Shown here: positions 38,539-40,435 of the stretch, one piece after another
Numbering within the stretch: the first letter of the stretch is position 1
How the letters are laid out: each line of letters begins with the position of its first letter
Source of the DNA: Aminobacter carboxidus
GTDB lineage: Bacteria > Pseudomonadota > Alphaproteobacteria > Rhizobiales > Rhizobiaceae
NCBI RefSeq assembly: GCF_014863355.1
Contig: NZ_JACZEP010000006.1
Coordinates: 248,001-312,000 of the forward strand
Direction: 5' to 3'
DNA length: 64,000 nt
Program-made: the position numbers and the translations under genes
The notes under the pieces: generated by a model
What the model saw: only the letters and a program-made list of their open reading frames with translations
Database searches by the model: none
What the model was told of the DNA's origin: nothing

Positions 38539-38569
38539 CTAGTTTTATGACCGAAGACGAGGTGAGGAC

Positions 38570-39130
38570 ATGGCTGGTATCGGGAAGGACATGCGGCGGG
38601 TCGCCTGTCGGTGCGGACAGGTGGCGTTCGAGGCGAGTGGCGCGCCGATCGTCGGTGCGGCCTGCTACTGCTCGAGCTGCCAGAAGGCAGGCAAGATTTT
38701 CGAGGCGCTGCCCGGCGGCGAACCGGTGCTGGAGAGCGATGGCGGCACGGCTTACGCGCTCTACCGCAAGGACCGTATCCGCTGCGTACACGGTGCCGAG
38801 CTGTTGCGCGAACATCGGCTGAGCCCGACGGCGCCGACCCGGCGCGTGGTGGCCACATGCTGCAATTCGCCTGTTTTTCTCGAGTTCAAGGGCGGCCACT
38901 GGCTGTCGGTCTATCGCGAGCGCATCCACCCTGACGAACGGCCGCCGGTCGAGATGCGCACGATGACCGCCGACCGCAGGCCCGGCGTCGAGTTCTCGGA
39001 TGGCTTGCCGAGCTACGCCAAGCATTCCGGCCGATTCATGTGGCGACTGCTGACGGCCTGGGTGGCGATGGGTTTCCGCGCGCCCAAGGTGGAATACGTA
39101 AATGGAGAGCTCGATGTCCAAGGCAGCTGA
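38570..39130 (+). CDS. GFA-like zinc-binding protein (DUF6151 type)
   Basis: 186 residues. Cysteine motifs CRCGQVAFEA near the start, CYCSSCQKAG and a later CCNSPVF give the zinc-binding GFA fold (glutathione-dependent formaldehyde-activating enzyme-like), but the enzyme role is unproven in this family. The C-terminal half (GHWLSVYRERIHPDE) is shared with rhizobial DUF6151 proteins. ATG 38570 is used; 38591 is an alternative with GGAAGGAC upstream. The next gene overlaps its 3' end by 17 bases, so both belong to the TetR-controlled unit. Confidence 0.8.
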   Translation: MAGIGKDMRRVACRCGQVAFEASGAPIVGAACYCSSCQKAGKIFEALPGGEPVLESDGGTAYALYRKDRIRCVHGAELLREHRLSPTAPTRRVVATCCNSPVFLEFKGGHWLSVYRERIHPDERPPVEMRTMTADRRPGVEFSDGLPSYAKHSGRFMWRLLTAWVAMGFRAPKVEYVNGELDVQGS

Positions 39131-39416
39131 GAAGATCGAGATCCGCAACATCGTTTCGCCCAACCATGTCGTGCGCGTCGACAAGGCCAAATACAGCGCA
39201 ATGCGCGACGCGCTGCTTCAGGTTCTGCCGGCCGCGAGCCCGGGCCTGACGGTGGCGGAAGCCAAGGCGGCACTGCTGCCGATCCTGTCGGAGGAGCTGT
39301 TTCCCGGCGGCGAGAAGGCCGGCTGGTGGCTGAAGGCAGCCCAGCTCGACCTCGAGGCACAAGGCGTCATCCAGCGCGAGGCGACCAAGCCGCTCAGGCT
39401 CTACAAGGCGCAGTGA
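39114..39416 (+). CDS. Small hypothetical protein (DUF6958-like)
   Basis: 100 residues from ATG 39114, 10 bases after GGAGAG. The sequence has a two-helix/winged look: PNHVVRVDKAKYSAMRDALLQVLP, LTVAEAKAALLPILSEELFP and KAGWWLKAAQLDLEAQGVI. It resembles DUF6958-type proteins, named here from memory, and may bind DNA or protein through the winged-helix-like part. It overlaps the GFA gene by 17 bases and is probably co-transcribed. Confidence 0.6.
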   Translation: MSKAAEKIEIRNIVSPNHVVRVDKAKYSAMRDALLQVLPAASPGLTVAEAKAALLPILSEELFPGGEKAGWWLKAAQLDLEAQGVIQREATKPLRLYKAQ

Positions 39417-39418
39417 CC

Positions 39419-39452
39419 AAAAATGCAGCCCGGACCTGCGTGCAGGCCGGGC
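39419..39452 (-). terminator. Rho-independent terminator of the Clp-N transcript
   Basis: On the minus strand GCCCGG...GCAGG (39428-39452) folds into an 11-bp stem with one bulge and is followed by a T-run (A-run at 39419-39423 on the + strand). It lies after the Clp-N stop at 39487. Confidence 0.65.
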
Positions 39453-39486
39453 CGCGAACAGAGCCGGTGGCCGGCCAATGTTCCGC

Positions 39487-39990
39487 TCATGAGCCCTTGG
39501 CAATCTCTTCGGCTGCGGCCTTCAACATGCCGGCATCGACGCCCATCGCCCGCAGCGCGCGGGCGGCGACGCCATGCTGCATCGAGGCGATCGTGGCAAC
39601 GACATGCGCGCCGAGCAGCGGACCATGGGCTTTCCGCTCCGCTGCCAGTTGCTGCATGATTTCCTGCCCTGAGGCTGAGGCATTGAACGGCACTGGCCTC
39701 GCGGCCAGCGGCGCGTGCCCAGCCGATGCGGCAGCGCCGACATCGAGGCCGATGGCGGCGAGCGCGTTGCCATACTGACGAGCGATGGCGGGCTCCAGCG
39801 CCTCGGGATCCACCCTGATCCGCTCGAAGGTAAGGCGCGCGGTGCCGTCGGGCAGGTCGAGTGCCGCAAGCAGGAAGTGTTCGGCGCCGGGCTCGCGCTG
39901 CTGGTCCTGCAGCGCATAGGCCTCCGCCGCCTCGCACAGGGTCTTGATCGTACTCATGTCATTGAAGCGCGCCTTGATGCGACTGAACAT
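39487..39990 (-). CDS. Stand-alone Clp N-terminal domain protein
   Basis: 167 residues. Two Clp-N repeats are visible (about residues 15-85 with AEAYALQDQQREPGAEHFLLAAL, and about 105-160 with AAERKAHGPLLGAHVVATIAS), the substrate/adaptor-binding module of ClpA/ClpC. There is no AAA+ domain, so it cannot unfold proteins itself; it may bind adaptors or clients, or act as a stress sensor. The start shares one base with the stop of the upstream HTH gene (TAATG). The two genes share one promoter and end in a terminator, making a compact unit. Confidence 0.82.
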   Translation of the reverse strand: MFSRIKARFNDMSTIKTLCEAAEAYALQDQQREPGAEHFLLAALDLPDGTARLTFERIRVDPEALEPAIARQYGNALAAIGLDVGAAASAGHAPLAARPVPFNASASGQEIMQQLAAERKAHGPLLGAHVVATIASMQHGVAARALRAMGVDAGMLKAAAEEIAKGS

Positions 39991-40217
39991 TAGGAAATCT
40001 CCTGGGCCGATTTTTCTGCGATGTCGGACAGGCGCTTGTGCGCCGCCTGCTTGCTGACGCCGAGAGCCTGGGCGATCCGCGCCCACGACCACCCCTGTCC
40101 GAGCGCCGACCTGACGGCGCGCCGCTCGAGCGTGTCGGCCAGCCGCCGCAATGCAACCACCGCGGCCAGGGCTTCGTCGGGATCGTCGGGCAAGTGCAGA
40201 GCGTTCAGGTCAACCAT
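39990..40217 (-). CDS. Small helix-turn-helix protein paired with the Clp-N protein
   Basis: 75 residues. An N-terminal helix (DPDEALAAVVALRRLADTLERRAV) precedes a helix-turn-helix (QGWSWARIAQALGVSKQAAHKRL). This resembles the small regulators encoded before Clp-N genes in actinobacteria and alphaproteobacteria. Two operator-like palindromes lie immediately upstream and overlap the -35 and -10 sites. The predicted start of transcription falls at or next to the ATG, so the mRNA may be leaderless. Confidence 0.82.
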   Translation of the reverse strand: MVDLNALHLPDDPDEALAAVVALRRLADTLERRAVRSALGQGWSWARIAQALGVSKQAAHKRLSDIAEKSAQEIS

Positions 40218-40219
40218 GC

Positions 40220-40263
40220 GTCAACATTAGTTGACGGCCATACATCCGTCAACCAATGTTGAC
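40220..40263 (-). promoter_or_regulatory. Promoter and twin operators of the HTH/Clp-N operon
   Basis: GTCAAC-N4-GTTGAC occurs twice, at 40220-40235 and 40248-40263, 28 bases apart. On the minus strand a -35 TTGACG (40247-40252), a 17-base spacer and a -10 TAATGT (40224-40229) place the +1 about 7 bases later, at the ATG (40217). Both operators cover promoter elements. Confidence 0.72.
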
Positions 40264-40435
40264 AGAAAACGCGCGCGGCGACAGCCGATCGCCTTACGCT
40301 ACGTCAATATACTGAAGTGTGCTTTCAACCTTGCCGAGAAGGGAATCTTAAAGCTTGCTCATATAGGTATTGCAAATATTCGCGCCGAAACGCGAAGGAG
40401 AACAAGCTGGGGGGCGAGTTCATTTCGCCGAACAT

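What the first reader, a model, noticed from the sequence alone, without database searches (positions are those of the whole stretch)
39419..40265. Self-contained HTH/Clp-N unit with twin operators and a leaderless promoter
A 75-residue HTH protein and an AAA-less Clp-N protein share an overlapping TAATG, two identical GTCAAC-N4-GTTGAC operators placed over -35 and -10, a promoter whose +1 falls on the start codon, and a terminator. The Clp-N protein may bind ClpC/ClpA adaptors or clients and signal proteolytic load to the HTH protein. I know of no described mechanism for this pair in this group, so it is the best candidate for a new small regulatory system here.
Basis: partly seen in the sequence, partly recalled or inferred. 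Interest (0 to 1): 0.7.

Follow-up and report, generated by a model that had tools for sequence, protein, structure and literature searches.

The report
Two-gene ClpC2-like self-repressing unit
A soil bacterium carries a two-gene version of a switch known from mycobacteria: a tiny DNA-binding protein that appears to repress its own operon, next to a free-standing copy of the docking domain of a protein-degrading machine; comparison with relatives suggests which part of the known switch really reads the DNA.

Summary
In detail: a 75-aa HTH gene and a 167-aa Clp_N-only gene overlap as TAATG; two GTCAAC-N4-GTTGAC palindromes, the only exact ones in the 6.29-Mb genome, cover a predicted -35/-10 whose +1 is the start codon.

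The architecture is published for the fused actinobacterial protein ClpC2: twin CGTCAAC-n5-GTTGACG operators, leaderless, autorepressed, derepressed by cyclomarin (PMC10030653). The window holds a split form with n4 operators. Clp_N is adjacent in 78 of 80 relatives. The HTH family (in a wide sense) occurs in 173 of 246 genomes of an actinobacterial class but strongly in only 3 of 398 Pseudomonadota; all 37 pseudomonadotan rows form one clade.

New: three residues of HTH helix 3 co-vary with three operator bases, so the HTH protein very likely reads the operator. ClpC2's crystallised N-domain ends just before this helix; its published DNA site lies in the other domain and is probably wrong or incomplete. 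Independent changes are few and clade effects exist, so this needs a gel shift. Clp_N as sensor and sponge is inferred; its ligand is unknown and the cyclomarin-site residues are not kept.

The parts
39990..40217 (-). gene of the 75-aa HTH protein (stop included); helix 3 = residues 55-62 SKQAAHKR
   Evidence: AF2 model pLDDT 87 with helices 13-40, 45-52, 56-74; profile of 85 relatives matches ClpC2 N-domain 8ADA, E 8e-4, and RelI 9SDC, E 6e-9
39487..39990 (-). gene of the 167-aa Clp_N-only protein (stop included)
39988..39992 (-). TAATG stop/start overlap of the two genes
40220..40235 (-). operator 2 (promoter-proximal), GTCAAC-TAAT-GTTGAC on the minus strand; ends 2 nt before ATG; its spacer supplies the -10
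40248..40263 (-). operator 1 (promoter-distal), GTCAAC-ATTG-GTTGAC on the minus strand; its right arm supplies the -35
40247..40252 (-). predicted -35, TTGACG
   Evidence: sequence; TTGAC in this arm in 122 of 131 loci with a clean operator pair
40224..40229 (-). predicted -10, TAATGT, 17 nt from the -35; predicted +1 = A of ATG at 40217
   Evidence: sequence; TANNNT at 16-18 nt in 120 of 131 loci with a clean pair; not called by the consensus scan
39419..39455 (-). candidate intrinsic terminator: 13-pair hairpin with one bulge, then AUUUUU
   Evidence: z -1.88; not called by the scan

Best explanation
The unit is a split, two-gene relative of the actinobacterial ClpC2 autorepressor. The 75-aa HTH protein binds the two palindromes, which sit on the -35 and the -10 of a leaderless promoter, and so represses its own operon (strongly supported by comparison, not by experiment). 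The Clp_N protein is a free-standing decoy of the N-terminal receptor domain of a Clp ATPase. By analogy with ClpC2 it binds a peptide-like toxin or unfolded clients; when it does, repression is lifted and more decoy is made, which soaks up the ligand and spares the real Clp machine (inferred). In the split form the signal must pass between two proteins. Most likely Clp_N contacts the HTH protein and steadies the repressor on DNA until it is occupied (inferred; not tested). Shown: gene pair, operators and their conservation, HTH homology, helix/operator co-variation, Clp_N fold. Inferred: repression, Clp_N-HTH contact, ligand, protection.
For: Layout equals that described for clpC2 in PMC10030653. 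Twin sites: 76 of 85 loci have two N4 sites with up to 2 mismatches and starts 27-29 bp apart (sites by spacer N4 162, N3 2, N5 1). Gene pair: Clp_N next door in 78 of 80 named loci, in all 30 actinobacterial loci and both further pseudomonadotan loci with strong HTH hits (4 of those 30 repeat named loci), and in 29 of 29 loci. HTH: profile match to ClpC2 N-domain 8ADA, E 8e-4; fused ClpC2 of Nocardia and Tsukamurella continues behind the point where 8ADA stops with TKQAAQKR, the equivalent of SKQAAHKR. Helix reads operator: residue 56 A/P in 17 of 17 ATCAAC loci and K/R in 58 of 58 GTCAAC loci (2 of the 58 are repeats); it was the best-associated column of both proteins. Residue 58 S/T in 12 of 12 loci with G at half-site base 5 in two or more half-sites and in 0 of 119 others; residue 61 other than K/R in 9 of 9 loci with non-C base 6 and in 1 of 122 others. 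Clp_N: ClpC N-domain fold. The two proteins' distances correlate, r 0.77, 0 of 500 permutations.
Against: No binding, expression or ligand data. Independent changes are few: 4, 6 and 5 operator changes on the tree; of 8 well-supported independent pairs 6 agree, 0 oppose, 2 show no change, and no single test can reach 0.05. Clade effects produce such associations without contact: for AGCAAC against GTCAAC loci the best column lay in Clp_N (residue 76), not in the HTH. Six loci with A58 have one G at base 5. 25 of 156 loci had no clean pair and were left out. A ClpC2 double arginine mutant in the C-domain does bind DNA less well (PMC10030653, section 11). Cyclomarin-site residues are not kept: ClpC1 F2 position is R/K in 34 of 37 pseudomonadotan proteins; F80 position is Y/F in 27 of 37. 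Massilia L058, L061, L064 show one palindrome only.
Confidence: 0.65

Rival explanations
1. The HTH protein is a plain autorepressor, and Clp_N is only its cargo: an adaptor, holdase or decoy made when the repressor is lost, for example because heat or proteolysis removes the HTH protein. Clp_N does not feed back on the HTH protein.
For: All co-variation evidence concerns the HTH protein and DNA, none shows an HTH-Clp_N contact. More distant members of the HTH family stand without Clp_N: of 40 weaker actinobacterial loci 16 had an adjacent Clp_N, 3 a fusion and 21 neither, so the HTH works without it there.
Against: In the close family the pairing is nearly constant (78 of 80; 29 of 29) and the two proteins' distances track each other (r 0.77). 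In fused ClpC2, ligand binding to the Clp_N domain lowers DNA binding (PMC10030653).
Confidence: 0.22
2. Clp_N itself binds the operator, as proposed for the C-domain of ClpC2, and the small HTH protein is mainly a dimerising helper.
For: PMC10030653 (section 11): ClpC2 R185A/R189A binds DNA less efficiently than wild type, and a surface of the C-domain is conserved and positively charged.
Against: R185-equivalent is L in 36 of 37 and F in 1 of 37 pseudomonadotan Clp_N proteins, although the operators are kept; R189-equivalent is R/K in 31 of 37. The same paper reports that the isolated C-domain and the N-domain mutant R57A support high-affinity binding poorly. Base preferences follow HTH helix 3.
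Confidence: 0.05
3. It is a toxin-antitoxin pair: HTH antitoxin plus Clp_N effector, autoregulated as such pairs are.
For: Small autoregulated two-gene operon, patchy in Pseudomonadota; the HTH resembles the RelI antitoxin (9SDC, E 6e-9), itself linked to ClpC2 in passages of PMC13284704.
Against: Clp_N is a docking domain fold with no known toxic activity; no PADLOC family matched Clp_N, and the HTH gave only weak CARF-linked hits. The pair or the HTH family is near-ubiquitous and chromosomal in Mycobacteriaceae-type genomes (98 of 121), unlike a patchy addiction module.
Confidence: 0.06

Closest known systems
ClpC2 of mycobacteria and other Actinomycetota (Rv2667 and relatives; PMC10030653)
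   Same: Clp_N-type ligand-binding domain, related N-terminal HTH domain, twin palindromes with GTCAAC/GTTGAC arms over -35 and -10, predicted leaderless mRNA, no AAA modules.
   Different: ClpC2 is one polypeptide; here two genes. ClpC2 operators have 5-bp spacers (paper; also 4 of 5 fused loci seen here), the split ones 4 bp. Helix 3 has Q where the split family has an invariant H60. Cyclomarin-contact residues are not conserved. Hosts include Pseudomonadota.
ClpC3 (MSMEG_3761), small Clp protein of Mycobacterium smegmatis
   Same: Small Clp_N protein reported to rise with ClpC2 under BacPROTACs (passages of PMC10746685, PMC10864484) and clpC3 mRNA to rise in cold (passages of PMC10454040).
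   Different: Whether ClpC3 is the Clp_N partner of a split pair is unsettled: the free-standing structure 8B9O was only a moderate match to two mycobacterial-family split partners, and that 8B9O is ClpC3 is my guess.
RelI antitoxin (9SDC; PMC13284704, passages)
   Same: Related small HTH protein, E 6e-9 by profile; the authors note partial similarity to ClpC2 in an HTH region.
   Different: Paired with the RelS toxin, not with Clp_N.
Plant ClpT1/ClpT2 and other Clp_N-only proteins
   Different: No HTH partner known to me (recalled); chloroplast Clp core accessory proteins (recalled).
Clp_N domains of ClpC, ClpA and ClpB
   Same: Fold and sequence family; profile best for ClpC (1e-9), then ClpC2 (4e-7), ClpA (2e-6), ClpB (7e-5).
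   Different: No AAA modules here; the host's two long Clp_N ORFs (916 and 823 aa) look like ClpB and ClpA (inferred), no third long one was found.

Membership tests
Clp_N domain (PF02861) | Pfam match above gathering score | tested here: met
   41.2 bits, cut-off 20.7; 49 of 49 proteins of alignment A4 match at E <= 0.001
ClpC2-type autorepressor | N-terminal domain homologous to ClpC2 residues 4-72 | tested here: met
   profile of 85 HTH proteins matches 8ADA residues 34-72, E 8e-4; the single window protein did not hit it at E <= 10
ClpC2-type autorepressor | ClpC1-NTD-like C-terminal domain | tested here: met
ClpC2-type autorepressor | both domains in one polypeptide | tested here: not met
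   two overlapping genes in different frames; Clp_N in a separate ORF at all 78 loci where it was found
ClpC2-type autorepressor | twin CGTCAAC-n5-GTTGACG operators over -35 and -10 | tested here: not met
   twin sites and position agree, spacer is 4 not 5
ClpC2-type autorepressor | leaderless transcript | tested here: inconclusive
   predicted from -35/-10 position; in 30 of 85 loci, the window among them, the ORF opens only 3 nt before the start, so no earlier start is possible; no 5' end data
ClpC2-type autorepressor | cyclomarin-contact residues (ClpC1 F2/F80; ClpC2 F96/F172) | tested here: not met
   F2 position R/K in 34 of 37; F80 position Y 24, F 3, other or gap 10 of 37 (alignment of F2 rests on a 6-residue offset, consistent)
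ClpC2-type autorepressor | protein binds its operator; ligand lifts binding | not testable with these tools
   needs gel shift and reporter assays
Type II toxin-antitoxin pair | known toxin fold or toxic partner | tested here: inconclusive
   partner is Clp_N; no PADLOC match for it; toxicity not testable here

The most novel reading that the evidence does not exclude
A widespread two-protein proteotoxic-stress or antibiotic sensor: a free Clp_N decoy holds a matching mini-repressor on a leaderless promoter and lets go when it captures a toxin or unfolded client. It arose in Actinomycetota, entered Pseudomonadota, which lack ClpC, essentially once and now guards ClpA or ClpB there. In ClpC2 itself the operator is read by the N-terminal HTH, whose recognition helix was cut off in the published crystal fragment, so the published placement of DNA binding in the C-domain is mistaken.
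Probability: 0.3. Interest if true: 0.7.

Novelty: new variant of a known kind. Interest (0 to 1): 0.5.

Why it matters
If right, it corrects the DNA-binding assignment of ClpC2, a protein that blunts ClpC1-directed antibiotics, and gives a natural dissection of it: repressor and receptor as separate proteins that can be assayed one by one. The helix-3/half-site rules (residue 56 with base 1, 58 with base 5, 61 with base 6) are directly testable. It also raises the question of what a ClpC-type receptor decoy senses in bacteria that have ClpA and ClpB but seemingly no ClpC.

Tried and rejected

A regulon beyond the operon: one-mismatch sites in the own genome are near the control level. One pair, 39 bp apart on contig C13, lies inside a 522-aa reading frame; I dropped it.

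Phage origin: 397 pattern matches in viral contigs, none a relative by tblastn. NCBIfam: nothing above cut-off.

ClpC3 as a split partner: two searches, unsettled.

identification of alternative partners was by eye only and is not relied on.

Numbers to read with care. In one search the start codon was chosen as the one nearest to operator 2, so its distances (2-4 nt in 80 of 85) lean towards leaderless; one search gives the unforced count. The operator finders looked at 4-bp spacers only; tried 3-6. In one search three further loci with weak HTH hits (21-28 bits) had no Clp_N; the other weak hits were not opened. In one search Clp_N was missing at L096 (a PadR-like gene follows) and L110 (by eye a Clp_N-like start follows). 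One search's list left out L042, L097, L101; alignment A4 used 49 of the Clp_N proteins, A6 47, A5 68 of 85 HTH proteins. The tree is a quick search with midpoint root, so 'nested in Actinomycetota' depends on the root.

Full report
WHAT IS THERE. On the minus strand at 39419-40265 lie a 75-aa HTH gene (39990-40217) and a 167-aa Clp_N-only gene (39487-39990) that overlap as TAATG. Upstream are two exact GTCAAC-N4-GTTGAC palindromes, the only two exact ones in the 6.29-Mb genome. Read by hand, the distal one supplies TTGACG and the proximal one TAATGT, 17 nt apart, with the A of ATG at the expected +1. The consensus scan called neither a promoter nor a terminator; a 13-pair hairpin with AUUUUU follows the second gene. 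The closest named relatives are Aminobacter ciceronei and A. anthyllidis (97% and 93% in the HTH protein), which share about 8 kb around the unit at 84-87% DNA identity. Two further genomes placed in the same genus lack a Clp_N match; one of them (G143) keeps the neighbouring genes, window 38560-39404 at 79%, and the match stops there.

RELATIVES. A scan of genome contigs with an HTH alignment gave 80 loci (capped list) from Alpha-, Beta- and Gammaproteobacteria and Actinomycetota. A Clp_N gene follows directly, as a separate ORF, at 78 of 80. Of 85 loci (these 80, the window and four plasmid loci) 76 have two N4 palindromes with at most two mismatches and starts 27-29 bp apart; sites by spacer length were N4 162, N3 2, N5 1. 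In whole-genome samples a Clp_N-protein search found a clear relative only in the own genome (1 of 151 of the family, the other two matches weak; 1 of 385 of the class, the other ten weak). The HTH profile gave strong hits in 3 of 398 Pseudomonadota genomes (17 with any match at E <= 0.001), but matches in 173 of 246 genomes of an actinobacterial class and in 98 of 121 of the family that holds Nocardia (E <= 1e-6). These last counts include fused ClpC2 and distant HTH proteins. Opened loci: 32 of 35 have an adjacent Clp_N (the three without are weak HTH hits), 29 of 29, but only 16 of 40 weaker ones (plus 3 fusions, 21 with neither). So the HTH family is wider than the pair.

TREE. In a Clp_N tree of 113 rows the 37 pseudomonadotan rows form one clade (SH-aLRT 99), inside a larger group that also holds actinobacterial rows when rooted at the midpoint. 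HTH and Clp_N distances correlate (r 0.77, 0 of 500 permutations, 113 pairs), as expected of genes that travel together.

THE KNOWN SYSTEM. PMC10030653 (abstract, introduction, three further sections and passages read) shows that ClpC2 represses its own promoter and that cyclomarin lifts this; it describes CGTCAAC-n5-GTTGACG sites, often two, over the -35 and -10, and a probably leaderless mRNA. It solved residues 4-72 as a dimeric four-helix domain after proteolysis in the drop, and residues 94-252 with cyclomarin, and placed DNA binding in the C-domain (R185, R189). My profile of 85 HTH proteins matches 8ADA residues 34-72 (E 8e-4); the match ends at the last residue of the fragment, at profile position 54, right before helix 3. 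Fused ClpC2 of Nocardia (L128) and Tsukamurella (L129) continues with TKQAAQKR, the counterpart of SKQAAHKR. Passages of PMC13284704 already mention an HTH region in ClpC2. Fused clpC2 loci show N5 sites in 4 of 5 seen (the fifth, L224, showed no palindrome).

WHO READS THE OPERATOR. Outer half-sites fall into classes. ATCAAC loci have A or P at HTH residue 56 in 17 of 17, GTCAAC loci K or R in 58 of 58; this was the best-associated of all columns of both proteins (8 mixed loci and 9 without a clean pair left out). In a wider set of 156 loci, 131 with a clean pair, residue 58 S/T goes with G at base 5 in 12 of 12 and A with fewer than two G in 119 of 119 (six of these have one G), and residue 61 other than K/R goes with a non-C base 6 in 9 of 9, with one further non-K/R locus. 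Parsimony needs 4, 6 and 5 operator changes; of 8 well-supported independent pairs, 6 agree, none oppose, 2 show no change. No test reaches significance alone. A warning from the same data: for AGCAAC against GTCAAC the best column lay in Clp_N, so shared ancestry alone can mimic such links. What speaks for contact is that three separate positions, all in the predicted recognition helix, follow three separate bases. The arginine R185 of the published site is L or F in 37 of 37 pseudomonadotan Clp_N proteins, though their operators are kept.

MECHANISM AND STATUS. Best reading: HTH represses; Clp_N is receptor, sensor and sponge; the two talk across a protein contact that the fused form has built in. 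The first step is well supported by comparison, the others rest on analogy. Because the fused form is published, this is a new variant of a known kind. I found no description of the split form in six searches of a library that lacks most subscription papers; one relevant paper cited there (Hoi 2023) I have not seen.

Noticed in passing
L209, L217, L218: Distant HTH relatives without Clp_N; L209 and L218 show two N4 palindromes, L217 one, and by eye a serine-hydrolase-like ORF (DFEIGSISKG) follows: the HTH module may serve other partners.
   Followed up: partly
L097, L101: Clp_N partner carries a C-terminal extension of roughly 150 aa; it looks SRPBCC-like to me (recalled, not tested).
   Followed up: no
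L238, L240, L242, L248, L251, L255-L258: Clp_N partners with long Gly/Arg/His-rich tails, with HTH helix 3 ending in HQK and often only one palindrome found.
   Followed up: no
Nocardia/Nonomuraea/Solirubrobacter loci such as L076-L083: Only the outer half-sites change to AGCAAC while the inner ones stay GTCAAC, making the operator pair symmetric about its middle; may point to cooperative binding or to promoter constraint.
   Followed up: partly
L058, L061, L064 (Massilia): Only the distal palindrome is found; the proximal one seems lost.
   Followed up: no
L042 (Rhizobium sp. RCAM05350): Clp_N matches fall in two overlapping reading frames, as if frameshifted.
   Followed up: no
fused clpC2 loci L128, L129, L222, L223: N5 spacers go with Q at the position of the invariant H60 of the split family; possibly linked changes.
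   Followed up: partly
G000:C13:10330-10384 (L012, L013): Two one-mismatch operator-like sites 39 bp apart inside a 522-aa reading frame.
   Followed up: partly
window 39102-39416: Convergent neighbour is a DUF6958 protein (PF22278, 123.5 bits), next to a GFA-like gene.
   Followed up: no
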